From contig CAIJLZ010000004.1 of assembly GCA_903821605.1 (NCBI GenBank), forward strand, positions 248,001 to 312,000: a stretch of DNA of 64,000 nucleotides. Direction: 5' to 3'. This DNA comes from an uncultured Sphingomonadales bacterium. GTDB lineage: Bacteria; Pseudomonadota; Alphaproteobacteria; Sphingomonadales; Sphingomonadaceae. The notes under the pieces are model-generated. The model saw only the letters and a program-made list of their open reading frames with translations, was not told the origin of the DNA and made no database searches. Each line of letters begins with the position of its first letter. The stretch's first letter is position 1. Position numbers and translations under genes: made by a program. This document shows, piece after piece, positions 4,140 to 28,459 of this stretch.

Positions 4140-4141
4140 CC

Positions 4142-12884: not shown

Positions 12885-12989
12885 GAACAATTATCCCGGT
12901 CTTGTTGAACGATAAACTCTGTATGGGTTGCGGGGCTGCGGGTCTAGTCTTTCGGTAACGGCGCAAGAAAGCGACGAGAGGATGACAGC

Positions 12990-14246
12990 ATGACCGAAAC
13001 CGGTGACGCTGCCGCAACTGGCTGGCAGCCCCCTGTACGCCCCGAATGGCTGGCGCGCTTTCTAGAAGAAACAAAGTCATGGGACGCGCGCGGCGTGGCC
13101 CCGCTGCAATTCGATGAACTGGTCGAAACCGCGCGCCGGAACACGGGACTCGACGATTTCGGCACAGAGGACTGGCAGGAAGCGCTGCAGATCCTCCTCC
13201 ATTCGATCGAGACCGAGGCCGAACTGCACATCTTTGGCCGCATCTGGACCCGCAACGACATATTGTCGTTCCTCGAAGCGCGGCTGCGGATCGAACAAGC
13301 CTATAAGGCGCATCCCGAGATTGACGATGAAGTGATCGACCGCCCGGTCTTCGTCACGGGCCTGCCGCGTTCGGGCACATCGATCCTGTTCGAACTGTTG
13401 GCCCAAGACCAGCAACTGATGGCCCCGGCCAATTGGGAATTCGTGCTGCCCTGCCCCCCGCCAGAGGCGGCGACCTATCGCACCGATCCGCGCGTGCCGC
13501 GCGCGCATGATCTCATCACCCAGCTTGGCCGCGTGGCCCCCAGTCTGAACGCGATGCACGAACTGGGTGCGTGGATTCCCAACGAATGCTTCGTCGCGCT
13601 GCGCATGAGTTTTCGGTCGGGCCATCTTTCCGCCGCCTGTCAGGTGCCAAGCTATAACAACTGGCTGTTCGGCGCGGACATGGAACCGGCCTATCGCCAC
13701 TACAAACGACTGCTCAAGCTGCTGCAATGGCGCAACCCGCGCGATCACTGGCTGCTCAAATCGCCCGAACATGAAACCTTCCTGCCCACGCTATTCAACG
13801 TTTTTCCCGATGCACGCGTGGTGTTGACCCACCGTGATCCGGTGCGCGCGCAAGGTTCGGTCACCAGCCTGCTCGGCACGTTTTTTTCCATGCGCAGCGA
13901 CAAGCCGTTCGATGCCGCCGCGTTTGAGGAACTGTTGACGCCCGAAGGCACGGCGGGCCGCCTGAACCAGACGATCGCTTGGATCGAAAGCGGTGCGGTC
14001 CCGTCGGGCCAGATCACCCATTCGCGATATGCCGATCTGATTGAAGACCCGCAGGCCGCGCTGGCGCGGATTTACACCGGCTTGGGCCTGCCTTTTACCG
14101 ATCAGGCGCGCTCGGCGGTCACCGCCTATCTCGCGGCCAAGCCCAAGGGCAAATTTGGCTCGCATCGCTATGCGGTCAGTCAGGATGATGCCACCCGCGC
14201 GCTGTTCGCGCCCTATCAGGCCTATTTCGAGGTGCCGACCGAATGA
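12990..14246 (+). CDS. PAPS-dependent sulfotransferase family protein, 418 aa
   Basis: Predicted to transfer sulfuryl groups from PAPS to an acceptor hydroxyl. The 5'-phosphosulfate loop is clear: PVFVTGLPRSGTSILFELL with LPRSGTS at residues 125-131, and a later LTHRDPVRAQGSVTSLL supplies the Arg/Ser that bind the 3'-phosphate in the family. WLLKSPEHETFLPTLFNVFPDARVV is another family segment. No signal peptide is seen. It opens an operon with two SDRs and a DUF1214-like gene, and overlaps the next gene by ATGA. A related protein lies at 25051-26328, also followed by a DUF1214-like gene. The acceptor is unknown; a polycyclic alcohol is inferred from the neighbourhood. Confidence 0.85.
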   Translation: MTETGDAAATGWQPPVRPEWLARFLEETKSWDARGVAPLQFDELVETARRNTGLDDFGTEDWQEALQILLHSIETEAELHIFGRIWTRNDILSFLEARLRIEQAYKAHPEIDDEVIDRPVFVTGLPRSGTSILFELLAQDQQLMAPANWEFVLPCPPPEAATYRTDPRVPRAHDLITQLGRVAPSLNAMHELGAWIPNECFVALRMSFRSGHLSAACQVPSYNNWLFGADMEPAYRHYKRLLKLLQWRNPRDHWLLKSPEHETFLPTLFNVFPDARVVLTHRDPVRAQGSVTSLLGTFFSMRSDKPFDAAAFEELLTPEGTAGRLNQTIAWIESGAVPSGQITHSRYADLIEDPQAALARIYTGLGLPFTDQARSAVTAYLAAKPKGKFGSHRYAVSQDDATRALFAPYQAYFEVPTE

Positions 14247-15028
14247 GCAAGAGATTGAACGGCAAGATCGCGCTGATCACCGGCGCGGGCAGTGGCATCG
14301 GTCGTGCGAGCGCCTTGCGCTTCGCACAGGACGGCGCGGTGGTATATGTCAATGATTACGACGCAGGATCTGCCGCGTCGGTGGTCGCGCTGATCAGAGA
14401 AGAGGGCGGCGCGGCAGAGCTGGCCGTTGCCGATGTGACCGATCCCGCCGCGGTGCAGGCCTTGGTCGACCGGGTGGTGGCCGAACGCGGCCGGCTCGAT
14501 GTGCTCTTCAACAACGCGGGTGGACAACAGCCCCGGCCAACCCACGAGATCGGCATTGAAGACTATCACCGGATCGTGGCCCTGAATCTCCACTCGGCAT
14601 TTTATGGCGTCCACGCCGTGCTGCCGGTGATGATGCGGCAGGGTGGCGGCGTGATCCTGTCTACCAGTTCAGGCGCGGGGATCGGCGCGGTCGAAGGGTT
14701 GGCAATCTATGGTGCCGCCAAGGCCGGCATGGCCAGCCTGATGGGCAGCATCGCTGCCGAATATGGCCGCCATGGTATCCGCGCCAACACGATCTCGCCC
14801 GGGCCGATGGATACCCCGGCGCTCCGCACCTATTTGAACACCGTGCCGGATGGCGCGGCCATTTTCGCAAGTCAGGTGCCTGTCGGGCGGCTTGGCACCG
14901 CACAGGACATCGCGGCGGCGGCGGCCTTCCTCGCGTCGGATGACGCTGCCTTCATCAGCGGTGTGGTGCTGCCGGTTGATGGCGCGATTCACGCCCGGCT
15001 GGCCTCGCCGCAATTGCCTACTCGATAA
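14243..15028 (+). CDS. SDR oxidoreductase, 261 aa
   Basis: Classical short-chain dehydrogenase: cofactor motif TGAGSGIGRASALRF, an Asp at the end of the second strand (VNDYDAG) that favours NAD(H), NNAGGQQPRP, and the active site Ser/Tyr/Lys in STSSGAG and YGAAK. The C-terminus has ASDDAAFISGVVLPVDGA. It overlaps the sulfotransferase by four bases, so the two are translated together and may act on the same alcohol or ketone. Hydroxysteroid dehydrogenase activity is plausible but not shown by sequence. Confidence 0.88.
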   Translation: MSKRLNGKIALITGAGSGIGRASALRFAQDGAVVYVNDYDAGSAASVVALIREEGGAAELAVADVTDPAAVQALVDRVVAERGRLDVLFNNAGGQQPRPTHEIGIEDYHRIVALNLHSAFYGVHAVLPVMMRQGGGVILSTSSGAGIGAVEGLAIYGAAKAGMASLMGSIAAEYGRHGIRANTISPGPMDTPALRTYLNTVPDGAAIFASQVPVGRLGTAQDIAAAAAFLASDDAAFISGVVLPVDGAIHARLASPQLPTR

Positions 15029-15039
15029 GGAGAAAACGC

Positions 15040-15864
15040 ATGGATCTAGGACTGAACGGCAAGACGGTGATCATCACCGGCGGTAGCGGCGGCATTGGCC
15101 ACGGCCTGCTGATCGAATTCGCGCGCGAAGGGGCAAATGTCATCTCCGCCTCCCGCGATGTTGCAACCGGGGAGAAGATCGCGGCGCGCGCACGCGAATT
15201 CGGCTGTGCGGGTACCATCGTTCCGGTGGCGACCGATGTCACCGACCGGGCCAGCGTCGATGCGATGGTGGCTGTTGCCCATGAGCGGTTCGGACCGGTG
15301 GACGTGCTGGTCAACAATGCTGGCGGGGTCGCCGCGATCGGCCCGTTCGAAGACATGGAGCAATCCGCCCGCGATTGGGAAATTGCGCTCAACATCAACG
15401 GCGTGGTCAATTGCACCCAGGCCGTTGCCAAGGACATGCTCTCACGCGAGACCGGCAGCGTGATCAACATCTCGTCGAATTCGTCGCTGGTGGGGGAATC
15501 CGGGCAGGGCATTGTCCATTATGGTGCGGTCAAGGGCTTCGTGAACAGCTTCACCAAAATGCTGGCCTATGAATGGGGGCCAAAGGGCGCGCGGGTGAAC
15601 TGCATCGCACCGGGCTGGATCGTGCCCTATTCGAACGAAGATATTGCGGCGGGCAGCTTCTGGAACCGCCTGTCGATGGGCAAACCGGAGGACATGGATG
15701 CCGCGCTGGCCGATGGTACGCTGTTCAACATGGACAACATGCCGATCCGCAAGCTCGGCCGGCCAGAGGACATTGCCTATTACGCGCTCTATCTGGCGTC
15801 AGACGTCTCCCGCTATGTCACCGGGCAGATGATCTCGATCAGCGGTGGCCACGCCATGCCCTGA
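15040..15864 (+). CDS. SDR oxidoreductase, 274 aa
   Basis: Short-chain dehydrogenase with ITGGSGGIGHGLLIEFAREGA at the N-terminus, NNAGGVAAIG, NISSNSSLVGESGQGIVHYGAVK as the Ser/Tyr/Lys region and a C-terminal SDVSRYVTGQMISISGGHAMP. A long insertion (ANSEDIAAGSFWNRLSMGKPEDMDAAL region, about residues 190-230) lies in the substrate-binding loop and probably shapes a large pocket. AAGGAG precedes the ATG. It is the second of two SDRs between the sulfotransferase and the DUF1214-like gene. Two SDRs in tandem may oxidise and re-reduce a hydroxyl to invert it; that is speculation. Confidence 0.87.
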   Translation: MDLGLNGKTVIITGGSGGIGHGLLIEFAREGANVISASRDVATGEKIAARAREFGCAGTIVPVATDVTDRASVDAMVAVAHERFGPVDVLVNNAGGVAAIGPFEDMEQSARDWEIALNINGVVNCTQAVAKDMLSRETGSVINISSNSSLVGESGQGIVHYGAVKGFVNSFTKMLAYEWGPKGARVNCIAPGWIVPYSNEDIAAGSFWNRLSMGKPEDMDAALADGTLFNMDNMPIRKLGRPEDIAYYALYLASDVSRYVTGQMISISGGHAMP

Positions 15865-15901
15865 CGGCATGTTGCGCCTTTCTGCCATAGGAGTTCCCCC
15901 G

Positions 15902-17095
15902 ATGACCGATCACCAAACCCGGCTGCGCGATGCTTGGCACAGCTTCTGCGATGAATTGAAAAAGGCTGGCGACATTCCGCTGCGCCCGACGGCGCCCGGC
16001 AATCCGGTTGAAAAGGCGACCGCCTATCGCCTGTTGGCGCGCAATATCGGCTTGGCCTTGCAGTTCGAGATGGACAATGTCGATCCGCTGAATCCGGAAT
16101 TGCTGCATTACTTCGATCCGATCCGCAAGCAAGGCGGTGACAACACCGACGCGCTCTATGTCGGCGGTCCGATCAACGGGATCGATACCTATCGCGTGAG
16201 CGGCAAACGCGGCACCGCGCGCTATTTCAGCATCACCGTGGTGGAACAAGGCGATACCCCATGGGGCGGGGGCGTGGCCAACATGCTGTTCGGGGACCAG
16301 ATCCATGTGGAAGAAGACGGCACTTTTGAACTGATCGTCAGCCCGGATCCAAAACCTGCAGACCAGCCTGATGTGAACTGGATACAGACCACGCCCAATA
16401 GCTATCGCCTCACCTTCCGCCAGTTTTTCGCGGATTGGGAACGGGAAGATTCGATGGAGGCGCGGATCGACCGGCTGACCGGCGATGGCGCGCCGCCGCA
16501 ACTGACGCCCGAAGGCGTGGCCGAGGGACTGGCTGCGGCTGCGCATTGGGTCAACTGGTCGGTGACCTATTGGGCCGACATGATCGACAAGTGGAAAGTC
16601 CAGCCCAATTGCTTCCTGTCCTATCGCCAGTTGGAAGACCGCAAAATCGACGCGACGCCGGGTGGGCAGCCGATCATCGCCTATTGGATTCTGCCCCCGG
16701 ACGAGGCGCTGATCGTGCGCGTCCGCCCGCCAAAGGCGGAATATTGGGCGCTGGAATTCGGCAATTACTGGTGGGAGACGATGGATTATCGCTATCGCCT
16801 GTCGAGCACCAACTGCCACCATGCGGTGCTGCAAGATGATGGTGAGCTGATCGTGGTGATTTCCCATGATGATCCCGGCGTGCCCAATTGGCTCGATACC
16901 GCTGGCCATTCAGAAGGCTATATGACCTTCCGCTGGATGTTGGCCGAAAGCTGCCCCATTCCCGTGGCGCAGCAGGTCAAGCGGGCGGAATTGTTCGATC
17001 ACCTGCCCAGTGATATGCGGCGGATCACGGCTGACGAACGCCGCGAACAGATCGCCGCACGCCGCCGGGGGATTGTGCATCGCTTCAAATGGTAA
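15902..17095 (+). CDS. DUF1214-like protein of unknown function, 397 aa
   Basis: I do not recognise a biochemical function. The C-terminal third has the pattern of the DUF1214 family: WALEFGNYWWETMDYRYR, then DDGELIVVISHDDPGVPNWLDTAG and a closing FRWMLAES segment. There is no signal peptide, unlike many DUF1254/DUF1214 proteins, so it is probably cytoplasmic. The ATG at 15902 follows a TAGGAG site. It ends the operon begun by a sulfotransferase, and a distant relative (26331-27596) directly follows the second sulfotransferase, so the two families appear functionally tied. It meets the MFS transporter gene end to end, with only four bases between stops. Confidence 0.7.
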   Translation: MTDHQTRLRDAWHSFCDELKKAGDIPLRPTAPGNPVEKATAYRLLARNIGLALQFEMDNVDPLNPELLHYFDPIRKQGGDNTDALYVGGPINGIDTYRVSGKRGTARYFSITVVEQGDTPWGGGVANMLFGDQIHVEEDGTFELIVSPDPKPADQPDVNWIQTTPNSYRLTFRQFFADWEREDSMEARIDRLTGDGAPPQLTPEGVAEGLAAAAHWVNWSVTYWADMIDKWKVQPNCFLSYRQLEDRKIDATPGGQPIIAYWILPPDEALIVRVRPPKAEYWALEFGNYWWETMDYRYRLSSTNCHHAVLQDDGELIVVISHDDPGVPNWLDTAGHSEGYMTFRWMLAESCPIPVAQQVKRAELFDHLPSDMRRITADERREQIAARRRGIVHRFKW

Positions 17096-17099
17096 CGGC

Positions 17100-18335
17100 T
17101 CAGGCTGCCGGGAATTTTCGCGTTTCTCCGCGTGTTTCCGGTAGCAGCCACAATATGGGAAGCGCGGCATAGGCGGCAAGGCTACACCAGAACGCCGCCG
17201 CGCCCACGCCGCCCAGCCTTGCGCCCATCTCCCCAACCACGGCGGGCGCGATCACCATGCCCCAGCGCCCGATCAGGTTGTTACAGGCGCCATTGGCCGC
17301 GCCGCGCAGATGTGGGGGGAATAGTTCCGATGTCAGCGTGAAGCTGGCCGCCCAAATGCCATAGGTGGACTGGATGACGATCCAGCACGCACCGATCAGC
17401 CATTTGTCGTGGCTGGCATAGCCCAGTTGTGCGGCCAGGCCGAGCACGACAAGGAACAGGCCGATGGTGAAGCGCCGCCCCACGCGATCAACCATATATC
17501 CGGAAAGCAGGTTGCCCAGTGCGGCTGCCGCGAGAATGGCAGGCCCCAGCAACGCCAAGTCGCCCGCATTCCACCCCCGTTCCTTCACGGCATAGGTCGT
17601 GAAGAACACGCTGGTCGAAACCGAGGCGAAGTTGATCAACACCCATAGCAGGCTGACGAGCAAGAATTGCCGCCGCAGATCAAGGCTCCACAACTGGCGA
17701 ACTTGCGTGATCAGCGAAAGGCCAGCCATGCCCCGCTGGCGCGAGGCGACAAATGCCGGTGTTTCAGGCAGCAGGAAAAACAGCAACGGCAGGATGAGCA
17801 AGGGCGCCCCGCCGATCAGGAACAATCCGCGCCATCCGAGCGAGGTTGCCAGCATTTTTTCCAGCAGCATGAACGGCAGCGCGGCACCCAGACTGCCCAG
17901 CGCGCCCAACAGCCCGTTGATACGCCCCCGCCATTGGGGCGGCAGGGTCTCGGTCACGATCAGATAGGCGACCGAGACTTGGGTGACCGCCAACATCCGC
18001 GTGAAAAACTGGAAGGCGGCGTAATGCCAAAGGTCGGTGGCCAGCATGGTCGCCAGCGACCCCGTGGCAAATCCGCCCGTGGCGATCAGCAGCAGCGGGC
18101 GACGACCGAACCGGTCGGCCAGCCGCAAGAGCAGCGCCGCCGCGATCGCGCCCATGCCGACGGCAGCCACGGCTTGACCGATCGCTTGCGGCCCCACATG
18201 GAATTCACCGCTGACATAGGGCAGCACGATGCTGGTGACGCTGATGTCGAACCCTTCGAATAGCACGACCAGCGCCATCATGGCGATTAGGGCCATGGTT
18301 CGCCATCCGCGATGTGCTGTCTGACTTTTGGCCAT
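17100..18335 (-). CDS. MFS transporter, 411 aa
   Basis: Major facilitator superfamily permease with about 12 predicted hydrophobic segments. The N-terminal FEGFDISVTSIVLPYVSGEF and the loop-2/3 motif LADRFGRRPLLL place it near the aromatic-acid/organic-acid proton symporters, and a second GRR motif (DRVGRRFTIGLF) opens the second half. Predicted inner-membrane protein; could import a carboxylated substrate or export a product. It is on the same strand as cysQ-cysNC-cysD but about 100 bases downstream of cysQ, so co-transcription is possible. Substrate unknown. Confidence 0.88.
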   Translation of the reverse strand: MAKSQTAHRGWRTMALIAMMALVVLFEGFDISVTSIVLPYVSGEFHVGPQAIGQAVAAVGMGAIAAALLLRLADRFGRRPLLLIATGGFATGSLATMLATDLWHYAAFQFFTRMLAVTQVSVAYLIVTETLPPQWRGRINGLLGALGSLGAALPFMLLEKMLATSLGWRGLFLIGGAPLLILPLLFFLLPETPAFVASRQRGMAGLSLITQVRQLWSLDLRRQFLLVSLLWVLINFASVSTSVFFTTYAVKERGWNAGDLALLGPAILAAAALGNLLSGYMVDRVGRRFTIGLFLVVLGLAAQLGYASHDKWLIGACWIVIQSTYGIWAASFTLTSELFPPHLRGAANGACNNLIGRWGMVIAPAVVGEMGARLGGVGAAAFWCSLAAYAALPILWLLPETRGETRKFPAA

Positions 18336-18436
18336 GTTACGCGGCTGTCAGTCCGGCTTCGGCATGCCGTGCCTGATCCAGAACCATGGCTTTGGGTCTC
18401 GCCCCCGCTCTGCGCTTGCGCTTCATCACGGGTTTC

Positions 18437-19201
18437 CTAGGCTGGCTGGGTCGAGTTCCGGTGCGTCTGTGCGATCAAATCCAGCACGGTGCTGGCGTGT
18501 TCCTTCCGGCAGATCAACAGGTCGGGCAAATAGACGTCGCTGGCATTGTAGATCAGTGGACTGCCATCGATCCGGCTGCAATGCAGCCCATGTGCCTGTG
18601 CCACCGCCACCGGCGCGCAACTGTCCCATTCATACTGGCCGCCGGAATGCAGGTAGATATCGGCTTGCCCTAGGATCACGGCCATCGCCTTGGCACCGGC
18701 GGACCCCATCGGCACCAGCTCCGCGCCGAGCGTTTCCGCGACCTGCACCGCTTCTGCAGCAGGGCGGGTGCGGCTGACGACCATGCGCAGCCGATCCGGC
18801 GCGGGTGGTACGGCGCGCGGTTGATCGCTGCGCAGCACCACGCCGCCATCAAATCCCGGAAGTGCGACCGCGCCCAGTGTTGCCACGCCGTCCACCGCCA
18901 GCCCGACATGCACCGCCCAATCGGCGCGCTCCTCGCCATATTCGCGGGTGCCGTCAACGGGATCGACAATCCACACGCGCGATTTTGCAAGCCGGTCGAC
19001 GCTGTCTTTTTCTTCCTCCGACAGCAAGCCGTCATCAGGCCGCTGTTGGCGCAGGGCGTGGCATAGGAACTGGTTGGCAGTGGCATCCCCCGCCTTGCCC
19101 AGTGCCTTGGCCGGCAGCAGCCCCGCCGCGCGCACTTCGATCAACAGGCGTCCGGCCACGGCGGCGAGATGCGCAGCGAGATCCCCGTCATGCAGGCTCA
19201 T
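18437..19201 (-). CDS. cysQ: 3'(2'),5'-bisphosphate nucleotidase CysQ, 254 aa
   Basis: Inositol-monophosphatase-fold enzyme that hydrolyses 3'-phosphoadenosine 5'-phosphate (PAP), the by-product of PAPS-using sulfotransferases and PAPS reductase, and may also lower PAPS. The metal site is visible as LLSEEEKD (residues 59-66) and the signature [14 protein letters not shown] (77-90), with a second motif [16 protein letters not shown] near residue 200. Length is typical. Its start overlaps the cysNC stop by four bases, so the three genes form one minus-strand operon. Position beside two sulfotransferase genes fits removal of inhibitory PAP, although this is also a normal part of sulfate assimilation. 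Confidence 0.92.
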
Positions 19202-21105
19202 TTCAGCAGCTCCGTCACAATGCGTTCGGCTGCGTGCTGAGGCGTTTCCGCCGTGGTATCGACGCGCACTTCAGGGCTTTCGGGCGCTTCATAAGGGCTG
19301 TCGATGCCGGTGAAGTTCTTGAGCTGCCCGCTGCGGGCCTTTTTGTAGAGGCCCTTGACGTCGCGGCGCTCGGCTTCCTCCAGCGGGGTGTCGATGAACA
19401 CCTCGATGAAATCGCCTTCGGGCAGCATCGCCCGCACCATTTCGCGTTCGGCGCGGAAGGGGCTGATAAAGGCGGTCAGCACGATCAGACCGGCATCGGT
19501 CATCAGCTTGGCCACTTCGCCTACACGGCGGATGTTCTCGATACGGTCGGCTTCTGTAAAGCCCAGATCTTTGTTCAGCCCATGGCGCACATTGTCGCCG
19601 TCGAGCAGGAAGGTGTGCTTGCCCAAGGCATGCAGCTTCTTCTCGACCAGATTGGCTATCGTTGACTTGCCCGAGCCGGACAGGCCGGTGAACCACAGCA
19701 CCGCCGGGCGCTGGTGTTTCAGCGCGGCATGAGCGTCGCGGCTCACATCGACGGCTTGCCAGTGGACGTTCTGCGAACGGCGCAGGCTGAAGTGCAGCAT
19801 GCCCGCCGCAACGGTCGCGTTGGTGATCTTGTCGATCAGGATGAACCCGCCCAGTGTGCGGCTTTCGGCATAGGGCTCGAACACCACAGGGCGGTCGGTG
19901 ATGATTTCGACGACCCCGATGGCGTTGAGATCCAGCGTCTTGGCCGCCAGATGCTCCATGGTGTTCACATTCACCACATATTTGGGTTGCTGCACGGTGA
20001 CCGAGACGGTTTGCGTGCCCAGCTTGAGCCAATAGGCGCGGCCGACGTGCAGGGCTTCATCGTTGAGCCAGACCAGCGTGGTCTCGAACTGGTCGGCGGC
20101 CTGCGGCGGATTGTCGGCCGTGGCGATCACATCGCCACGCGAACAGTCGATCTCGTCCGCAAAGCACAAGGTGACGGATTGGCCGGCCACGGCCTCGTCC
20201 AAGTCACCATCGAGCGTGACGACGCGGGTTACCGTGCTGGTCTTGCCCGACGGCAGCACGCGCACGGCATCGCCCGGCTTGACGGAGCCGGTGGCGACGA
20301 GGCCAGAGAAGCCTCTGAAGTCGAGATTGGGGCGGTTGACCCACTGCACCGGCATGCGGAATGACTTGCTCGCATCAAGCGAGGACAGCACTTCCACCGT
20401 TTCGAGATGCTCGATCAGCGTCGGGCCTTTGTACCACGGCGTGTTGGGCGACGAAGTTGTGATATTGTCACCCTTGAAGCCGGAAATCGGTATCGCGGTG
20501 AAATTGTCGATCCCGATCGAGCGGGCGAACGCGGTATAGTCCTTGACGATGGTGTCGAAGACGGCCGGATCATAGCCGACCAGGTCCATTTTGTTCACCG
20601 CCAGCACGATGTTCTTGATGCCGATCAGGTGGCACAAATAGCTGTGGCGGCGCGTTTGTACCAGCACGCCCTTGCGCGCATCGATCAGGATCACCGCAAG
20701 GTCGGCGGTCGAGGCGCCGGTCACCATGTTGCGGGTATATTGTTCGTGGCCGGGACAATCGGCGACGATGAACTTGCGCTTTTCAGTGTTGAAGAAGCGA
20801 TAGGCCACGTCGATGGTGATGCCCTGTTCCCGTTCGGCGGCAAGCCCGTCGACCAGTAGCGCGAAGTCGATTTCCTGCCCTTGCGTACCGACCTTCTTGC
20901 TATCCGTTTCCAGCGCGGCGAGTTGGTCCTCGAAAATCATCTTCGAATCGTAGAGCATGCGCCCGATCAGCGTGGACTTGCCATCATCCACCGACCCGCA
21001 GGTGATGAAACGCAGCATGGTCTTGTGCTGGTGGCTATCGAGATATGCGTCGATGTCCTCGGCGATGAGCGCGTCGGTTTTGTAGATTACCTGCTGGTCC
21101 GACAT
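19198..21105 (-). CDS. cysNC: Bifunctional sulfate adenylyltransferase large subunit/APS kinase CysNC, 635 aa
   Basis: Fusion of a GTPase subunit of ATP sulfurylase with APS kinase; with CysD it makes APS, and the kinase part phosphorylates it to PAPS. The CysN part shows GSVDDGKST (residues 37-45), DCPGH (116-120) and NKMD (171-174) as GTP-binding motifs. The CysC part has [11 protein letters not shown] from about 472 and [17 protein letters not shown] near 500. The ATG at 21105 overlaps the stop of cysD (ATGA), and a longer in-frame reading upstream is rejected for that reason. Cytoplasmic. Gene order cysD-cysNC-cysQ delivers and disposes of the sulfuryl donor as a unit. Confidence 0.95.
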
Positions 21106-22013
21106 CAGAAATACCCCTGCTGCTTCTTCACTTCCATGCCAGCACCGCCGGCGTCCTTGTCGATGGCGCGGCCCTGGCGCTCGCTGGTGGTGGTCAGCAG
21201 CGTCTCCTGAATAATCTCGGGCAACGTCTTGGCTGTGCTCTCCACCGCACCGGTTAGCGGGTAGCAACCCAGCGTGCGGAAGCGAACCGAGCGCATCACC
21301 GGCTCTTCGCCGGGCTTGAGCGGAAAGCGATCGTCATCGACCATCAATAGCATGCCATCGCGCTCCACGGTTGGACGCTCGTCCGCGAAATAAAGTGGCA
21401 CGATCGGCACGTTATTGAGATGGATATACTGCCAGATGTCCAATTCGGTCCAATTCGAGATCGGGAACACGCGGATGGACTCACCCTTGTTCTTGCGGGC
21501 GTTGTAGAGGTTCCACAGTTCGGGGCGCTGATTCTTGGGGTCCCAGCCGTGGCTGGCGGTGCGGAAGGAGAAGATGCGCTCCTTGGCTCGGCTCTTTTCC
21601 TCGTCGCGCCGCGCGCCGCCAAAGGCCGCGTCGAAGCCGTATTTGTCGAGCGCCTGCTTCAGCCCTTCGGTCTTCCACATGTCGGTGTGAAGCGCGCCGT
21701 GATCGAACGGATTGATCCCCCGGTCCATCGCTTCCTGATTGTGATAGACCAGCAGGTCCATGCCGCTTTCGGCGGCCATGCGGTCGCGCAGCTTGTACAT
21801 CTCTTGAAACTTCCACGTCGTGTCGACGTGCAGCAGCGGGAAAGGCGGCGGCGAGGGATAGAACGCCTTGCGCGCCAGATGCAGCATCACCGCCGAATCC
21901 TTGCCCACCGAATAGAGCATCACGGGGTTCTCGGCCTCGGCCACAACCTCCCGCATGATGTGGATCGCCTCGGCCTCTAGCCGCGCAAGATGGGTAAGGG
22001 TCTTTTGGGTCAT
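21105..22013 (-). CDS. cysD: Sulfate adenylyltransferase subunit 2 CysD, 302 aa
   Basis: Catalytic ATP-pyrophosphatase-type subunit of heteromeric ATP sulfurylase; forms APS from ATP and sulfate together with the GTPase subunit. The PP-loop is [20 protein letters not shown] near residue 35, and [21 protein letters not shown] and [16 protein letters not shown] are CysD hallmarks; the C-terminus KKQQGYF is also family-typical. The ATG at 22013 lies about 10 bases after a GGAGAGAG site. First gene of the minus-strand operon, divergent from a LuxR-type regulator that begins 73 bases away, so both may share a promoter region. Confidence 0.96.
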
Positions 22014-22085
22014 GCTCTTTCTCTCTCTCCGCATGGGCGGTGTGTGCTTCAGATCGCCCCGAACCCTTGACAGCGAAGCTCCCAT

Positions 22086-23225
22086 ATGGGAGCAATCGAC
22101 ATGGCATTTCTATCCAGCGATCAACGCGAGCTTTTCCTGCCGCTTGTCGAGGGCATTCACGAAAGTCCGCCATGGGGCGCATTTCTGCGCAATCTCGTGG
22201 CGCGCACCTATTCCCGACGGGCGTTTCTGTGCGTCACCATGGCCAATTCCATGGCCAGCCAGCCCCCCCTCATCATCCATGTCGCCGCGCCGCGCGCCGC
22301 GCAGGAACCGCCGCTTGATGCCAGTCGGATGGACGCGCTCCAGCTCCACCCGATCGGGACGCTGCGGCCGGGCCGGGTCTATATGCTCGACGAATTGCTG
22401 GATTTCGATAACCCGGCCCAGTTGGCGATGCAGCGCGCCGCGCTGGATGAAATGGGCATCCGCTTTGTGCGTTGCCTGCGCGTGAGCGCGGGGGGCGCTG
22501 CTGATGCCTGGCTCGTGCTCGTGCGCGAGCGTGAGGATTTCTCCGCATCTGCCGGCGCCACCCTGTCCAGCATCGGGCCGCATCTTGCCGCCGCGTTGCG
22601 CACGCTCGTTGCACTTAGTGAAACGCGCCTACAGGCGGCGATGGCGCAAGCTGCATTGGCGCGGCTCGGTGTCGGCGAACTGGCCTTCGACGCGAGCGGC
22701 CGCATTTTGGCTGCTGATCCGCAGGCTGAGCGCCTGCTCGCGTTCCATACCGATCCCGGCGCGCCCCAGATGCGCCGCCTGCTGCTCCTGCCCGAAGCCG
22801 CGCGCCAACTCGAAGCCGCCTGTGCCGCGCTGGCGGCTGGCCCGGCAGAGGCGCGGCAAGTGCTGCGTATCGATGAAAGTCGCGCGCTCGATCTGCTACT
22901 GCGCCCGTCTGATCTCAATTTGTCCCAGCCCGCAGTCTTGCCTGCGGTCATCGGCACGATAAGGCAAATGGGCGAGCCATCCGGTTATGATGACACGGCC
23001 CGCGCCGCCCGTATCATTGCCGCGCTGCACGGCCTGTCGGAGCGCGAAGCCGCGCTCGCTCACGGTCTGACGTTAGGCGAAACCCTGATGGAAGCCGGTG
23101 CGCGTCTCCATCTTACACCCGAAACCGCGCGGAATTATTCCAAGCGCATCTATGCCAAAACCGGCACCAGTGGTCAGGCAGACCTCGTCCGTCTGCTCTT
23201 GACTGGCCTGGCCCCTTTCATCTGA
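22086..23225 (+). CDS. LuxR-type HTH regulator without receiver domain, 379 aa
   Basis: Predicted DNA-binding regulator. The C-terminal 65 residues form a LuxR-type helix-turn-helix: [47 protein letters not shown]. The N-terminal 300 residues are a sensory region without a recognisable phosphorylation site, with a PAS-like stretch near [20 protein letters not shown]. The same architecture is seen in the regulator at 55907-57055. ATG 22086 is used; ATG 22101 is an alternative. It faces cysD across 72 bases and is convergent with the TetR gene. Targets are unknown; cysDNCQ or the nearby catabolic operons are candidates. Confidence 0.8.
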
Positions 23226-23265
23226 TCGTCACGCGCATGCGATTGCGCTGTGAACGATGCCTAAA

Positions 23266-23895
23266 TTAGGCCGGGCCAAGAAAAATCTCCACGCACCGCG
23301 CCGCATGGGCGCGCACCTGTTCTGGCGAAGGGAGCGGCAGTCCCACCAGCATGGTGTTGTGCAGCGGTGACAGCGCCATCGCCACGAACAGCATGGCCCG
23401 TTCGACCGAGCCTTCTTCTTCCAAGCCATGGCGTCGCAGGAACGCCGCGAGCGGCGCGATCAGATAATCCAAATGGCCCCGCTCGATTGCTTCGCGCATT
23501 TCGGGAAAATCGCGCGCCTCGCCGAGTGAAAGCAGGCCCATGCCATAGCTGTCGGCCTGCGACAGTTCGCCGTGTAAATCGATCACATAGCGCTCCAGCG
23601 CGGCGCGCAAGTCTTGGTCCGCATCCGGCTCCAGCCGGGGGAAGCGTTCCGCCCCGGCGATGACGCAGGCGCTGAACAAGGCCTGCTTGTCATGATGCCA
23701 GGCATAGAGTGTACGTTTGGTGATCCCGGCAGCGGCGGCGACTTCGTCCATCGTGGTGGCGCGATAGCCCTGCCGCACAAAAATACTGCGCGCCACTTCG
23801 AGCAAGTGCGCCCTGCGCCGTTGCGTGGTTTCCGCCGAAGGCCGTCCCCGCTGGCCACTTGGGCCTGTGCCCTTCTGAAGTTTTTTCCCCGCCAC
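23266..23895 (-). CDS. TetR-family transcriptional regulator, 209 aa
   Basis: One-component repressor: N-terminal HTH at about residues 28-72 (HLLEVARSIFVRQGYRATTMDEVAAAAGITKRTLYAWHHDK) and a variable ligand-binding helical domain. The start is GTG at 23895; no ATG lies upstream of the HTH. It is divergent from the alcohol dehydrogenase/sulfotransferase operon at 24014, and the space between holds an inverted repeat at 23945-23960, the usual layout for a TetR repressor controlling itself and the neighbour. The ligand is probably a substrate of that operon. Confidence 0.9.
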   Translation of the reverse strand: MAGKKLQKGTGPSGQRGRPSAETTQRRRAHLLEVARSIFVRQGYRATTMDEVAAAAGITKRTLYAWHHDKQALFSACVIAGAERFPRLEPDADQDLRAALERYVIDLHGELSQADSYGMGLLSLGEARDFPEMREAIERGHLDYLIAPLAAFLRRHGLEEEGSVERAMLFVAMALSPLHNTMLVGLPLPSPEQVRAHAARCVEIFLGPA

Positions 23896-23944
23896 TCACC
23901 CTCCCTGCCGCGTTCCGCGCCCGTCGTAAATGGTCATTGATTAA

Positions 23945-23966
23945 TATACCATAGGGTATACCATAG
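23945..23966. promoter_or_regulatory. Probable TetR operator: palindrome overlapping a direct repeat
   Basis: TATACC (23945-23950), four-base spacer ATAG, then GGTATA (23955-23960) is a perfect inverted repeat. The ten bases TATACCATAG also occur twice directly, 12 bases apart (23945 and 23957), about one helical turn. It lies in the 118-base divergent region between the TetR gene and the operon at 24014, in AT-rich DNA that could include the promoter. Confidence 0.65.
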
Positions 23967-24013
23967 CAACGGACCAGCGAATCCAACCGCTGGCAAATAG
24001 AGAGGAACCGGCC

Positions 24014-25054
24014 ATGGAGTCCGACACGATGCCGCTCGCCCGCGTTCATGGGCCGGGTGATGTCCGCCTCGACGATGTGCCCGTGCCAGCCTGCGGGCTG
24101 GGAGAAGCAGTGGTGCGTGTGGCCGCTTGCGGCGTGTGCGGCAGTGATCTGAGCTATATTGCGCAAGGCGGGCTGGGCGGGGTTGAACCGCTCAGACAGC
24201 CGCTTGCCATCGGCCACGAATTTGCTGGCACGGTTATCGCGGTGGGCAGCGGCGTGGCCGGCGTTCAGCCGGGCCTGCGCGTGGCGGTGAACCCGGACCG
24301 CGCCTATATCGGTGGCGGCGGGCCGGATGGCGCCATGGCCCCGTTTATTCGGGTATCCGGCGCGGAAATTGGCGAAACGCTATTTCCCCTTCCTGCGCGG
24401 CTGCCCTTTGCCGAAGCTTCGCTGGCGGAGCCGCTGTCGGTCGGCCTGCACGGGTTGCGTGTGGCCAAGGTGACTGCGGCCGATAAAGTCGCGATTCTGG
24501 GGGCGGGGCCAATCGGGCTTTGCACGCTCGTCATGCTGCGCCATCTTGGCGTGACCGATGTGGCCATTTTTGATCGGGTGGATGAACGGCTAGACCGCGC
24601 CCGCGCACTGGGCGCAGGGCTTGCCGTCAACGTGTCATCTGAAAGCCTGCCGACCGCACTTGGCCGCTTCCACGGTAGCGGCGACCGTTTTGGCGCGCCC
24701 TTCGTCGGCACCGATGTGTTCGTCGACTGTGCCGGGTCCACCGCCGCCTTGGCAGAGGTGCTGTCGGTGGCGAAATATCGCGCCCGTATCGCGGTGATTG
24801 CGCTGCACCACAAACCCTTGCCACTCGATTTATGGCGGATGATGGCCAATGAGATCACGGTGTCTGGCTCCATCGCCGATGCCCGCGCCGCTGAATTTGG
24901 CGAGGCCGTCGCCATGCTGGGGCAGACCGAGCAGGACCTTTCCCCCCTGATCAGCCATCGTTTCGAATTCACCCGCTTCCATGAAGCGCTCGCCACCGCC
25001 GCCGATGCCGCCCGCGCGGCGAAGGTGGTGCTGACTTTCCCAGAGGCCGCATGA
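24014..25054 (+). CDS. Zinc-dependent alcohol dehydrogenase (MDR), 346 aa
   Basis: Medium-chain dehydrogenase that oxidises a secondary alcohol with NAD(P). Catalytic zinc ligands are visible: Cys39 in AACGVCGSDLS, His68-Glu69 in IGHEFAG and Glu139 in LAEPLSVGLHG. The structural-zinc loop with four cysteines is missing; residues 92-108 read NPDRAYIGGGGPDGAMA instead, so it is a short-lobe member. The Rossmann motif is GAGPIGLC (163-170). The ATG at 24014 follows AGAGAGGAAC. It opens an operon with a sulfotransferase, DUF1214-like protein, TIM-barrel protein and Gfo/Idh/MocA enzyme. Substrate could be a sugar or a sterol hydroxyl. Confidence 0.87.
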   Translation: MESDTMPLARVHGPGDVRLDDVPVPACGLGEAVVRVAACGVCGSDLSYIAQGGLGGVEPLRQPLAIGHEFAGTVIAVGSGVAGVQPGLRVAVNPDRAYIGGGGPDGAMAPFIRVSGAEIGETLFPLPARLPFAEASLAEPLSVGLHGLRVAKVTAADKVAILGAGPIGLCTLVMLRHLGVTDVAIFDRVDERLDRARALGAGLAVNVSSESLPTALGRFHGSGDRFGAPFVGTDVFVDCAGSTAALAEVLSVAKYRARIAVIALHHKPLPLDLWRMMANEITVSGSIADARAAEFGEAVAMLGQTEQDLSPLISHRFEFTRFHEALATAADAARAAKVVLTFPEAA

Positions 25055-26328
25055 CCACGAACACCCCCCTGATCCACATTGACGACATGGCCGATCCGGC
25101 GCTGACGCCCGAACTGCGCGCATGGCGCGAAGGTCCCGCCGATTTCCCCTGCCCATTGACGGCGGACGACGTGCTTGCCCGCGCCGTGGCCGAAACCGGC
25201 CTATCGGATTTCGGGCCGGACACCGGCTTTCGTGTCCGCCTCGCGGTGATCCTCCAGGCGCTTTACGAGGATTTGGGGCTGACCCGTGGCGGCCGCGTGT
25301 TCGTCCTTCAACAGGCGGTGCGCGCAATGGCCAACCGCCTGCGCATCGAAGACCTGGTCAAACGCCATCCCGAAATCCTGAACGTGCCGATCGACCGACC
25401 AATCTTTATCGCCGGGTTGCCGCGCTCAGGCACCACGCATCTCGTCAACTGGTTGTCGCGCGATGACCGGCTCAACGCGCTCACGCTGTGGGAATCGGAA
25501 GAGCCAGTGCCCGCTGCCCCGCTTGCGCCCGGCGAGACCGATCCGCGTCTGGCGCGCTCTGCCGCCTATTGGGGCGCGTTCGGCGCGCTGGTGCCGCATA
25601 TGGCTGCGATGCATGAAATGGCGGCGAATGATATTCATGAAGACAATGAACTGCTGTTCATGGACATGAATTGCTACAATTGGGAGTTTTCCGCTCGTCT
25701 GCCGCGCTGGACCGATCATTATTTGTCGCATGATCGCACGATCTCCTACGCCTATGAGAAAAAGGTGCTTCAGGTCATTGCGTGGCAGCGCGGGCTAAGG
25801 CCCGGCGAGCCGGGTCGCCGCCGCTGGCTGCTGAAATCACCGCAACACATGGAAAACCTGTCCGCGATCAAGGCGACGTTCCCCGATGCAACGATGGTGA
25901 TCACCCATCGTGATCCGGTGGACGTGCTGCGATCACTGACAACGATGCTCGGCTATTCTGACCGCACCCGGCGCGACCCGGTCGATCCGCCCGCGCTTGC
26001 CCGCCTCTGGGCCAGCCGTATCGAACGCCTGTTGCGCGAATGCGTAGCCCAGCGCGATGCCTTCGGTCCCGATCAGTCGCTGGATGTGTTGTTCCACCAA
26101 TATATGGCCGATCAGGAAAACACCGCGCGCCGCGTCTATCAGCTCGCCGGGCTGGACCTGCCGCCCGAGACTGAGGCGAAGCTGCTCGGCTATTTGGCTG
26201 AAAACCCGCGCCACGCGCACGGCAAGGTCGTCTACGATCTCGAAGGCGTGTTCGGGATGAGCGTGGCCGATCTGCGCCGTCGCTTTGCCTTTTATTACGA
26301 CCGCTTTCCCGTGAAGCAGGAGAACTGA
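25051..26328 (+). CDS. PAPS-dependent sulfotransferase family protein, 425 aa
   Basis: Second sulfotransferase. The phosphosulfate loop is PIFIAGLPRSGTTHLVNWL with LPRSGTT at residues 123-129, WLLKSPQHMENLSAIKATFPDATMVITHRDPVDVLRSL supplies the second PAPS segment. N-terminal region LTADDVLARAVAETGLSDFG parallels LQFDELVETARRNTGLDDFG of the 12990 gene, so they are paralogues. No signal peptide. It overlaps the alcohol dehydrogenase by ATGA and is followed after two bases by a DUF1214-like gene. Known relatives sulfate diverse hydroxyl groups; here the acceptor is unknown. Confidence 0.86.
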   Translation: MTTNTPLIHIDDMADPALTPELRAWREGPADFPCPLTADDVLARAVAETGLSDFGPDTGFRVRLAVILQALYEDLGLTRGGRVFVLQQAVRAMANRLRIEDLVKRHPEILNVPIDRPIFIAGLPRSGTTHLVNWLSRDDRLNALTLWESEEPVPAAPLAPGETDPRLARSAAYWGAFGALVPHMAAMHEMAANDIHEDNELLFMDMNCYNWEFSARLPRWTDHYLSHDRTISYAYEKKVLQVIAWQRGLRPGEPGRRRWLLKSPQHMENLSAIKATFPDATMVITHRDPVDVLRSLTTMLGYSDRTRRDPVDPPALARLWASRIERLLRECVAQRDAFGPDQSLDVLFHQYMADQENTARRVYQLAGLDLPPETEAKLLGYLAENPRHAHGKVVYDLEGVFGMSVADLRRRFAFYYDRFPVKQEN

Positions 26329-26330
26329 CC

Positions 26331-27596
26331 ATGTCCGCCCCGTCCGACACCGATCGCGCTGATACTGACCGCGCCGAGACCGCTCGTGAACGCCTGCTTT
26401 CCGGCCGCGCTTGGGATGATTTTTGCGACACGCTGAAAGTGGCAGGCCGACATATCAATGCGATCGATGGTCCTTTGTCCGATCTCGACCGCGCCGAATG
26501 GTATCGCTTCATGACCCGGCTTGCGCGGTCCAGCATGGAGCGGCTGATCGAAAATGCCGAACCTACCCGACCGCGCTTGCGGGACATGGTCTGGCGCCAA
26601 TCGATCAACGTGCAGACGGTCGATCAGGATCACCTGATGTGCCAGTTCGATGAAGCACGCGATTACCGCATCACCGGTACACGCGGCACCATCCCCTATT
26701 TTGTGATGGCCGTGCTGACCTGCCCCGCCCCCGATACGCCCGGTGCGCAGGACTGGGCGGCGCAGGGCGTCGAAGGGCTGAAGCAGTTCGATCCTTCCAA
26801 CCTCAAGACCACCGGTTTCCTAGCCAGCCAGCAAATGCATATCGAAGCCGATGGCACGTTCGAGTTGATCCTTTCGCAGAACGATCCCGGCGCGGGCAAA
26901 AACTGGCTCCGGCTGACGCCTGACACCAACTGCATCATGATCCGGCTCGTGTTTGGCGACCGCGGCTGTGAAGTCGCGCCCGCGATGACCATCGAACGGA
27001 TGGACCATGCCGCGCCCGAACCGGTCACGCCTGCCTTGATCGCCGATGGCTTGGCGTGGACCGGGCAGGCCGTGCTTGGTTATGCCGAACTGGTGCGCAA
27101 CTGGTGGCAGGGCACGCAGGGCAACTTCTCCGCACGCCTCAACCGGCTCGATTATAGCCGCGCGCAATATCTTTCCAATGGCGGCGTGCCGGATCGCCAT
27201 GTCGCTTTTGGGGGTTGGGAAAAACCGAAAGACATGGCGCTGGTCTTGGAATTCACGCCCCCGCCTTGCGAATATTGGAACTTCCAATTGTGCAACGTCT
27301 GGCAGGAAAATCTTGATACGTTCGAGGACGGCAATGGCTGGATCAACAATATCCGCCACGTTGCCGAAGCCAATGGTGTCGTGCGGGTGATCATTGCGGA
27401 AACCGACCCTGAAATCGGCGGCAACTGGATCAACAGCTATGGCCATGAGCGCGGCATCTGGGGCCTGCGCTTTGTGCAGACACAGGCCACCGCGCCGGTC
27501 ACCTTGTGGCGCGTGCCGCTCGCTAGCCTTCGGGCGCAAGGCCTCGCCTTGCTTGATCCCGCCACCGCCGTCGCCACCGGCCAGTTCGTAGATTAA
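26331..27596 (+). CDS. DUF1214-like protein of unknown function, 421 aa
   Basis: Function not recognised. N-terminal WDDFCDTLKVAGRHINAIDGPLSD parallels WHSFCDELKKAGD of the 15902 gene, and the C-terminal part has YWNFQLCNVWQENLDTF, then VVRVIIAETDPEIGGNWINSYG and RFVQTQ, the DUF1214-like pattern of a D-P-x4-NW core. No signal peptide or membrane segment. It starts two bases after the sulfotransferase stop. Repeated pairing with a sulfotransferase suggests either a partner protein or an enzyme acting on the sulfated product. Confidence is for a real gene and distant family, not function. Confidence 0.7.
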   Translation: MSAPSDTDRADTDRAETARERLLSGRAWDDFCDTLKVAGRHINAIDGPLSDLDRAEWYRFMTRLARSSMERLIENAEPTRPRLRDMVWRQSINVQTVDQDHLMCQFDEARDYRITGTRGTIPYFVMAVLTCPAPDTPGAQDWAAQGVEGLKQFDPSNLKTTGFLASQQMHIEADGTFELILSQNDPGAGKNWLRLTPDTNCIMIRLVFGDRGCEVAPAMTIERMDHAAPEPVTPALIADGLAWTGQAVLGYAELVRNWWQGTQGNFSARLNRLDYSRAQYLSNGGVPDRHVAFGGWEKPKDMALVLEFTPPPCEYWNFQLCNVWQENLDTFEDGNGWINNIRHVAEANGVVRVIIAETDPEIGGNWINSYGHERGIWGLRFVQTQATAPVTLWRVPLASLRAQGLALLDPATAVATGQFVD

Positions 27597-27601
27597 GCGC
27601 C

Positions 27602-28459
27602 ATGTCCCTTTCAGCCGATCTTATATTCTGTTCGCCCGCCATGCCCGGCGTGCCGCTGCTTGATCGGCTGGGTCCGGTGGCGGCAGCCGGGTTCACGGCG
27701 CTTTCGCTCATGCCCAGTGATGTCTGGGCGCTTGAAGATGCTGGCATGACCGCATCGGAAATCGCCGCGCGCATTGCCGATGCAGGATTGAAAGTCGCGG
27801 AAATGGACTGCACTGCGTGCTGGATGCCGCGTCAACAGATGCAGGGTGATGGCGGTGCCCTGTCGCTGTTGCTGCGCGGGCTGACCACCGAAAAGGTGGT
27901 GGACACCGCCGCACGCATCGGCGCCGCATCGGTGGTTGCGGTGGACATCGCCGATATGGTGTGCCCGCTCGACGAAGCGGCGGCCGGCTTTGCGCAACTA
28001 TGCGACGTTGCTGCGCAGCATGGATTGCCCGTGCAGATCGAATTTCTGCCCGTCGGCGGTATCCGTACGCTGACGCAGGCATGGGCGATCGTCTCTGCCG
28101 CTGGCCGCGCCAATGGCGGCTTGACGATTGATGCCTGGCATTTTTACCGCAGCGGATCGACGCTGGAACAACTCGCGCAGATTCCCGGGGACCGGATCCA
28201 CACCGTGCAGTTGTGCGATGCCCCGGCCACGCCGCAAGCGGACCTGTGGAATGAATTGATGACGGCGCGCCTACTGCCGGGCGAAGGCGATCTCGATTTA
28301 GTCGGGCTTGTCCGCACGCTTGATGCCATCGGTTCCACGGCCCCCTTCGGCGTCGAAGTGTTCAATACCCGCCAGCATGATCAAGCACTGACGCAAGTGG
28401 CCCGCGATTGGGTCACTGCCGCGCGCACCACACTCGCACTAGCAAGAGGCAACGCATGA
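27602..28459 (+). CDS. Sugar isomerase/epimerase-like TIM-barrel protein, 285 aa
   Basis: Member of the AP-endonuclease-2/xylose-isomerase-like TIM-barrel family, whose metal-dependent members isomerise, epimerise or eliminate sugars. Candidate metal ligands are Glu147 (VQIEFLP), Asp177 and His180 (LTIDAWHFYRSG), Gln203 (HTVQLCD) and Glu252 (FGVEVFN); LLPGEGDLDL is a further family segment. Five bases separate it from the DUF1214-like gene, and it overlaps the Gfo/Idh/MocA gene by ATGA. The pairing recalls systems that oxidise a sugar to its 3-keto form and then cleave the glycosidic bond by beta-elimination. That role is inference. Confidence 0.8.
   Translation: MSLSADLIFCSPAMPGVPLLDRLGPVAAAGFTALSLMPSDVWALEDAGMTASEIAARIADAGLKVAEMDCTACWMPRQQMQGDGGALSLLLRGLTTEKVVDTAARIGAASVVAVDIADMVCPLDEAAAGFAQLCDVAAQHGLPVQIEFLPVGGIRTLTQAWAIVSAAGRANGGLTIDAWHFYRSGSTLEQLAQIPGDRIHTVQLCDAPATPQADLWNELMTARLLPGEGDLDLVGLVRTLDAIGSTAPFGVEVFNTRQHDQALTQVARDWVTAARTTLALARGNA

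What the first reader, a model, noticed from the sequence alone, without database searches (positions are those of the whole stretch)
12990..27596. Repeated sulfotransferase plus DUF1214-like pair in a steroid-type catabolic locus
Two paralogous PAPS-type sulfotransferases (12990 and 25051, loops LPRSGTS and LPRSGTT) each share an operon with a distant DUF1214-like protein (15902 and 26331), once directly adjacent and once separated by two SDRs. Sulfation is not a textbook step of steroid degradation. A possible role is temporary sulfation of a hydroxyl to protect it, to make it a leaving group for elimination, or to trap the substrate in the cell, with the DUF1214-like protein acting on the sulfated product. 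This is the best candidate for an undescribed module here.
Basis: partly seen in the sequence, partly recalled or inferred. Interest (0 to 1): 0.8.

Follow-up and report, generated by a model that had tools for sequence, protein, structure and literature searches.

The report
Conserved sulfation module for steroid breakdown
Steroid-eating bacteria from many unrelated groups carry the same small gene set, a sulfate-attaching enzyme, a dehydrogenase and an uncharacterised two-domain protein, which suggests an undescribed step in which an intermediate is briefly sulfated.

Summary
Both sulfotransferases (ST, PF13469) and both DUF1214-like proteins are real and tightly packed; the genome has four of each type. 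Between the pairs lies cysD-cysNC-cysQ with the genome's only APS kinase; same-genus genomes lacking DUF1214 keep that operon, so here it is housekeeping.

Of the 80 best DUF1214-like loci from many phyla, 71 carry an ST, 58 directly beside it; in 25 checked genomes 22 were adjacent against 0.18 expected. An SDR lies beside 45 of 70 pairs. In the window's own family and in Actinomycetota the gene tracks KshA. In four Actinomycetota genomes DUF1214-SDR-ST runs convergently onto kshA, the order recalled for Rv3531c-Rv3529c of the KstR cholesterol regulon. A FadD3-family (HIP-CoA) ligase sits beside pair 1.

Most likely this is a catabolic sulfation module: SDR and ST make a sulfate ester that the tandem-DUF1214 protein consumes, perhaps by elimination. 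The module and its steroid link are well supported; substrate, DUF1214 chemistry and a physical complex are not shown (fused model pTM 0.53). Pairing is not universal (own family: 19 of 35 within 10 kb). My searches found no paper describing the pair.

The parts
12990..14246 (+). PAPS-type sulfotransferase of pair 1 (PF13469)
   Evidence: Pfam 120.6 bits; LPRSGTS loop; nearest solved chain 2zq5_A E 2.7e-48
14243..15028 (+). SDR 1 between ST and DUF1214
   Evidence: adh_short_C2 203.6 bits
15040..15864 (+). SDR 2; homologs above 270 bits beside the pair in 10 of 80 loci
   Evidence: (12 of 80 loci at 100 bits or more, 10 of them above 270)
15899..17095 (+). DUF1214-like protein of pair 1: two tandem DUF1214 beta-sandwich domains (ORF opens at 15845)
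   Evidence: AlphaFold2 model pLDDT 91.2 pTM 0.87; 6ans Z 42.7
17103..18335 (-). MFS transporter, neighbour, role unknown
18440..19201 (-). CysQ-type 3'-phosphoadenosine phosphatase (Inositol_P family)
   Evidence: 422 and 420 bits to genes annotated CysQ in plasmid records
19201..21267 (-). CysNC: sulfate adenylyltransferase subunit 1 / APS kinase; the only APS kinase found in the genome
   Evidence: NF004035 1069 bits, cut-off 715
21108..22085 (-). CysD (frame overlaps CysNC, so true ends may differ slightly)
   Evidence: NF009214 528 bits, cut-off 413
22086..23225 (+). LuxR-type regulator; homologs beside cysQ in two Novosphingobium plasmids
   Evidence: 487 and 443 bits; no Pfam hit at 1e-5
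24014..25054 (+). zinc alcohol dehydrogenase upstream of pair 2
25051..26328 (+). PAPS-type sulfotransferase of pair 2 (PF13469)
   Evidence: Pfam 124.6 bits; LPRSGTT loop
26331..27596 (+). DUF1214-like protein of pair 2
   Evidence: PF06742 30.3 bits, cut-off 25; paralogue of pair 1 protein
11838..12890 (-). AraC-type regulator divergent from pair 1; homologs at 336-368 bits beside the pair in L014-L016 and at 377 bits in L160
10291..11838 (+). FadD3-family acyl-CoA ligase (steroid ring C/D catabolism), context
   Evidence: NF005801 679 bits, cut-off 657

Best explanation
A conserved catabolic sulfation module. An SDR (or ADH) sets the oxidation state of a ring hydroxyl, the PF13469 sulfotransferase transfers sulfate to it from PAPS (made by CysD/CysNC; PAP removed by CysQ), and the tandem-DUF1214 protein consumes the sulfated intermediate, most likely by eliminating sulfate to leave an alkene (a two-enzyme dehydroxylation of an unactivated alcohol), less likely by hydrolysis. 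Several pairs per genome would serve different positions or substrates. SHOWN by computation: the genes, their pairing across phyla, the SDR, the link to PAPS genes, the link to steroid catabolism. INFERRED: that the ST is active with PAPS on a steroid-pathway metabolite; that DUF1214 acts after it; elimination.
For: 71 of the 80 best-scoring loci hold an ST above 100 bits, 58 of 80 directly adjacent, 53 of these on one strand. 22 of 25 genomes adjacent against 0.18 expected from their ST density; in 5 of the 25 the only PF13469 match of the genome is the neighbour. SDR within 1.3 kb in 45 of 70 pairs. CysD homologs in 6 and CysNC/APS-kinase homologs in 10 of 80 loci; one plasmid operon DUF1214-ST-VOC-CysQ-CysD-CysN (Paraburkholderia) and cysC/cysD divergent from DUF1214-SDR-ST (Tsukamurella plasmid; G223). 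64 of 70 paired STs keep a permissive 5'-PSB loop pattern. KshA link: 5 of 5 strict-KshA Actinomycetota genomes carry DUF1214 (12 of 198 do; Fisher 3e-7) and 12 of 15 in the own family (18 of 149 do; 5e-11). Four genomes have DUF1214-SDR-ST convergent on kshA. FadD3 ligase in the window. PMC6429209 (passages; [quoted passage not shown] KstR site with binding before Rv3531c (PMC1995591, passages). Paralogue numbers of the two families rise together (Spearman 0.83, 18 genomes).
Against: No enzyme activity is known for any DUF1214 fold and the fold searches gave no enzyme relative. No known step of the 9,10-seco pathway needs a sulfate leaving group (recall). 9 of 80 loci show no ST above 100 bits. 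STs of this type also occur without DUF1214 (64 of 131 DUF1214-negative genomes). The cysDNCQ operon beside the window pairs is the genus housekeeping copy. Two DUF1214 families of genomes in the draws lack strict KshA (6 of 18 own family, 7 of 12 Actinomycetota), so the module is not confined to steroid degraders with KshA. Redundant STs would explain the mycobacterial phenotype pattern as well. That Rv3531c and Rv3529c belong to these families rests on gene order and recall; no sequence of theirs was compared by name here.
Confidence: 0.42

Rival explanations
1. The pair sulfates a non-catabolised molecule (surface lipid, surfactant or signal) that helps take up or tolerate steroids; the DUF1214 protein binds or delivers the lipid.
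For: DUF1214 domains are beta-sandwiches without a known catalytic role; TonB-dependent receptors lie near DUF1214 genes in several loci; sulfated lipids are common ST products (recall).
Against: No glycosyltransferase or lipid-assembly genes were seen among the window neighbours examined by Pfam; neighbours are SDRs, acyl-CoA dehydrogenases, thiolases, FadD3; several diverged pairs per genome fit substrate range better than one surface product.
Confidence: 0.22
2. Sulfation traps, solubilises or detoxifies a steroid intermediate; the DUF1214 protein is a steroid-sulfate binding protein, an ST partner or a sulfatase rather than a lyase.
For: Same gene linkage evidence; invariant aromatic and polar residues (W161, R174, W283, N289, W291, E293, D296, N305, N330, R345) suit a binding site as well as an active site.
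Against: A fused ST-DUF1214 model gave no confident interface (pTM 0.53; inconclusive); detoxification alone does not explain why the DUF1214 gene rather than the ST is the one predicted to be needed on cholesterol.
Confidence: 0.25
3. The genes are neighbours only because steroid islands collect genes; the ST family here has lost PAPS chemistry or acts in an unrelated process such as the host-directed effect reported for mycobacterial Stf1.
For: PMC8882603 (passage) cites Rv3529c (Stf1) as dampening TLR2 signalling; STs of this type occur without DUF1214.
Against: Adjacency 22 of 25 against 0.18 expected; recurring PAPS genes in the same loci; most holders are free-living or MAGs without an animal host (titles); 5'-PSB loop kept in 64 of 70.
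Confidence: 0.07

Closest known systems
Mycobacterial Rv3531c-Rv3530c-Rv3529c (KstR cholesterol regulon)
   Same: Gene order DUF1214-like, SDR, ST, convergent on kshA, found in four Actinomycetota genomes here; listed among cholesterol genes in PMC6429209; KstR site upstream of Rv3531c (PMC1995591).
   Different: Annotated there as hypothetical; no sulfation step is assigned in the passages seen. Named sequences were not compared here; identity of these genes with the family is inferred from order and recall (2zq5 = Stf1 is recall).
6ANS, Burkholderia cenocepacia putative uncharacterized protein
   Same: Same tandem-DUF1214 fold over the whole chain: Z 42.7, rmsd 2.1, 355 residues, 32% identity; E 2.3e-52 by sequence.
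   Different: Uncharacterised; no paper found.
DUF1254-DUF1214 proteins VPA0735 / VPA0106
   Same: Share the DUF1214 fold partly (Z 14.5 and 14.0).
   Different: Weak sequence match (E 0.26); the window proteins show no DUF1254 hit and carry two DUF1214-type domains.
CurM sulfotransferase-thioesterase (curacin), sulfate as leaving group
   Same: Would share the chemical logic: sulfonate an alcohol, then eliminate sulfate (recall).
   Different: ST relation is remote (4gbm E 0.0057); partner is a thioesterase there (recall), not DUF1214; decarboxylative.
Hydroxysteroid dehydratases Hsh2/Hsh3 of Sphingomonadaceae
   Same: Remove a steroid hydroxyl (PMC12175502, passages).
   Different: Direct elimination; no sulfation or DUF1214 mentioned in the passages found.

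Membership tests
PF13469 PAPS sulfotransferase | score over Pfam gathering cut-off | tested here: met
   120.6 and 124.6 bits, cut-off 27
PF13469 PAPS sulfotransferase | 5'-PSB P-loop kept across the paired STs | tested here: met
   64 of 70 by a permissive pattern; 36 of 70 by a stricter one
PF13469 PAPS sulfotransferase | PAPS-dependent sulfate transfer | not testable with these tools
   no assay; linked PAPS genes only
PF06742 DUF1214 | score over Pfam gathering cut-off | tested here: met
   56.3 and 30.3 bits, cut-off 25; two actinobacterial relatives score no Pfam family
DUF1254-DUF1214 proteins | N-terminal DUF1254 domain | tested here: not met
   only DUF1214 found in both proteins at E 0.001
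Steroid 9,10-seco catabolic locus | steroid-specific enzymes in the neighbourhood | tested here: met
   FadD3-family ligase over cut-off; KshA_C 190 bits 77 kb from pair 1; the two window Rieske proteins are only KshA-like, 92 bits
Rv3531c-Rv3529c module | DUF1214-like, SDR and ST in one operon convergent on kshA | tested here: inconclusive
   layout found in four unnamed Actinomycetota genomes; the named genes were not compared; the window order differs (ST-SDR-SDR-DUF1214)
CurM-like sulfonation-elimination | sulfate ester made and then eliminated | not testable with these tools
   needs assay
Dedicated PAPS cassette | extra cysDNC copy besides the housekeeping one | tested here: not met
   single CysNC in this genome, orthologous operon in two same-genus genomes; plasmid cases (L115, L117) not tested for a second copy

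The most novel reading that the evidence does not exclude
Tandem-DUF1214 proteins are a new class of sulfate-eliminating lyases: together with a PAPS sulfotransferase and an SDR they remove unactivated hydroxyl groups from steroids and other polycyclic substrates by sulfonation and elimination, a general dehydroxylation route of bacterial catabolism that also operates in mycobacterial cholesterol breakdown.
Probability: 0.22. Interest if true: 0.9.

Novelty: new variant of a known kind. Interest (0 to 1): 0.74.

Why it matters
It gives a concrete, testable role to a protein domain of unknown function (DUF1214) and to three unassigned genes that sit in the best studied steroid catabolic regulon. 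If right, bacteria spend PAPS (costly) inside a catabolic pathway, which would add a chemical step missing from steroid-degradation schemes, help find hydroxysteroid degraders in metagenomes, and offer a new biocatalyst for removing hydroxyl groups.

Tried and rejected
Chance neighbourhood: rejected by base rate. Dedicated PAPS cassette in this genome: first thought, then dropped, because two same-genus genomes without DUF1214 keep an orthologous cysD-cysNC-cysQ operon. That CysH of this genome carries a CC..CxxC pattern (APS-reductase type by recall) means assimilation need not use PAPS, but does not prove a dedicated supply. ST-DUF1214 gene fusion: none among the loci screened (long frames checked). 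ST-DUF1214 complex: read-through fused model, pTM 0.53, linker pLDDT under 50; only 3 of 57 rows were paired and the first 95 or so ST residues were cut from the unpaired rows, so inconclusive. Fold relatives of DUF1214 beyond 6ans and the DUF1254/1214 proteins: only Z 5.6 or less among Foldseek's candidates, not interpretable. Mirror-tree correlation 0.86 over 70 loci has no species-tree control and is not used as evidence of interaction. KshA threshold (150 bits) and DUF1214 threshold (E below 1e-20) were set after seeing the lists; weaker hits were dropped (2 genomes in each DUF1214 draw; 10 of 15 and 19 of 34 genomes in the KshA draws), and the genomes are related, so the Fisher values are only indicative. 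The Actinomycetota draw was centred on G160, itself a DUF1214 holder. Of the loci, an ST of 93 bits (L047) was counted as absent; L032 is 3.1 kb and L081 ends 30 bp after the gene. Some flank proteins of L059 were taken in wrong frames and gave no Pfam hit.

Literature: no paper with DUF1214 and sulfotransferase or DUF1214 and steroid in the open-access library; in the 20 listed of 25 papers neither 'sulfotransferase' nor 'DUF1214' occurs. PMC3182942 main text has no mention of these Rv genes; its supplement was not seen. The paper on Rv3529c (doi 10.1189/jlb.4A0217-042R) is not held and was seen only as a citation. Subscription journals are mostly missing from the library.
Full report
What is there. 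The two sulfotransferases and two DUF1214-like proteins are real. ST1 12990-14246 and ST2 25051-26328 score 120.6 and 124.6 bits to PF13469, keep LPRSGTS/LPRSGTT loops and are 31% identical. The DUF1214-like proteins score 56.3 and 30.3 bits to PF06742 (cut-off 25) and are 28% identical. Pair 1 is ST-SDR-SDR-DUF1214, pair 2 ADH-ST-DUF1214 followed by a TIM-barrel protein, a Gfo/Idh/MocA oxidoreductase and SDRs. The genome (2.67 Mb, 19 contigs) has 7 PF13469 matches, of which 4 are of this type at E below 1e-30, and 4 DUF1214-like genes: the two window pairs, one pair about 6 kb apart on contig C12, and an ST and a DUF1214 gene about 20 kb apart on the window's contig. The three other STs score only 24-39 bits to the ST profile and have no DUF1214 in the stretches of about 10 kb fetched around them.

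Between the pairs. On the minus strand lie an MFS transporter, a CysQ-type phosphatase, CysNC and CysD; CysD and CysNC pass curated NCBIfam cut-offs, and the phosphatase is 420-422 bits from genes annotated CysQ. CysNC holds the only APS kinase found in the genome, and no other CysN-like gene scores above about 90 bits. A second CysD-like gene lies on C12 without a CysN hit in the 9 kb fetched. However, two same-genus genomes without the DUF1214 family and without this ST type at E 1e-30 carry an orthologous cysD-cysNC-cysQ operon. So in this genome the operon is best seen as housekeeping that now lies inside the island.

Pairing across bacteria. With a profile of four STs, 71 of 80 loci have an ST above 100 bits; in 58 of 80 it is directly adjacent (43 downstream and 10 upstream on the same strand, 5 on the other strand); 9 of 80 have none. 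In 25 of these genomes I counted 251 PF13469 matches in 126.8 Mb; chance adjacency would be 0.18 of 25, observed 22 of 25. In five of them (L052, L053, L059, L070, L086) the neighbour is the only PF13469 match of the genome. An SDR lies within 1.3 kb in 45 of 70 close pairs; a frequent order in the divergent group is DUF1214-ST-SDR-SDR. In 35 strong DUF1214 genes from other genomes of the window's family, 14 have a listed ST within 3 kb and 19 within 10 kb, so pairing is common but not universal; five of the looser cases repeat a spacing of 6-8 kb like the C12 locus. All 18 DUF1214-positive genomes of that draw have an ST of this type against 64 of 131 negatives.

PAPS genes. CysD homologs occur in 6 and CysNC or APS-kinase homologs in 10 of 80 loci. 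Annotated plasmids show the whole set: Paraburkholderia sprentiae, ADH-DUF1214-sulfotransferase-VOC-CysQ-CysD-CysN in one run of genes; Tsukamurella tyrosinosolvens, cysC and cysD beside a regulator and DUF1214-SDR-sulfotransferase. The unnamed Actinomycetota genome G223 repeats this layout. Whether these are extra copies was not tested.

Link to steroids. In the window, 10291-11835 is a FadD3-family ligase over its cut-off, and 4019-5206 resembles IpdE2 below its cut-off. The window's Rieske proteins are only KshA-like (92 bits); stronger KshA_C proteins lie elsewhere on the contig (190 bits; two places). In a draw of 198 Actinomycetota genomes, 12 have the DUF1214 family at E below 1e-20 and all 5 genomes with KshA_C of 150 bits or more are among them; in 149 genomes of the own family 18 have it, including 12 of 15 with such a KshA_C (Fisher values; thresholds set after seeing the lists, genomes related). 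Conversely 7 of 12 and 6 of 18 holders lack a strict KshA. In G211, G247, G269 and G323 the operon DUF1214-SDR-ST runs convergently toward kshA.

The mycobacterial connection. From recall, M. tuberculosis has kshA (Rv3526) convergent with Rv3531c-Rv3530c-Rv3529c. PMC6429209 (passages; [quoted passage not shown] PMC1995591 (passages) reports a KstR motif with positive binding between Rv3531c and Rv3532. PMC2905415 (passage) lists Rv3530c and Rv3531c with fadD19 and cyp125 in a co-regulated set. PMC8882603 (passage) cites Rv3529c as sulfotransferase Stf1. Named sequences were not compared; the nearest solved ST, 2zq5 (384 residues, E 2.7e-48), is Stf1 by recall only. The phenotype pattern fits a DUF1214 protein that removes a harmful product made by SDR and ST, but ST redundancy would fit as well.

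Structure. The DUF1214-like protein of pair 1 is predicted with pLDDT 91.2 and pTM 0.87 as two beta-sandwich domains with helical ends. It matches 6ans, an uncharacterised B. cenocepacia protein, over 355 residues (Z 42.7, 32% identity), and DUF1254/DUF1214 proteins at Z 14. Twenty-two positions are invariant in 49 sequences, among them D84, R174, N289, E293, D296, N305, N330 and R345. No enzyme relative was found. A fused DUF1214-ST model folds both halves but not their relation (pTM 0.53).

Reading. The evidence supports a sulfation module used in catabolism of steroids and perhaps other polycyclic compounds. I favour a sequence SDR, ST, then DUF1214 acting on the sulfate ester. Elimination is the boldest version and is inferred only. 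The substrate is unknown. Searches of the open-access library found no paper joining DUF1214 with sulfotransferase or steroid, and none of the 20 listed steroid papers contains either word.

Noticed in passing
window 27602-29583: A xylose-isomerase-like TIM barrel and a Gfo/Idh/MocA oxidoreductase (104 bits to levoglucosan dehydrogenase, below cut-off) follow pair 2 directly; this looks like sugar or glycoside chemistry inside a steroid island, perhaps steroid glycosides.
   Followed up: no
window 22086-23225; L114, L119: The LuxR-type regulator has close homologs (487 and 443 bits) beside cysQ in two Novosphingobium plasmids with DUF1214 and steroid genes, so it may control this sulfation system.
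   Followed up: partly
L005:2600-10807 and places in G013, G058, G062, G072, G108: A second conserved arrangement: DUF1214 and ST 6-8 kb apart, with a KstD-like FAD protein between them in L005.
   Followed up: partly
L117:14347-14856; L118:4267-4809; L120: Small VOC-family proteins (Glyoxalase_4; one hit just under its cut-off) sit beside the module in several plasmids.
   Followed up: no
L116 (Prescottella sp. R16 plasmid): DUF1214-like gene beside a KshA-like Rieske protein present twice as an inverted copy, with no ST hit in the 25 kb.
   Followed up: no
G155 (genome of L027, Candidatus Litorirhabdus singularis): 32 PF13469 matches in 4.8 Mb, far above the others examined.
   Followed up: no
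window 48956-51091: OYE-type flavoenzyme with 411 bits to bile acid enzyme BaiCD, below its cut-off of 825.
   Followed up: no
G000:C12:11219-11899: Second CysD-like protein without a CysN hit in the 9 kb fetched around it.
   Followed up: partly
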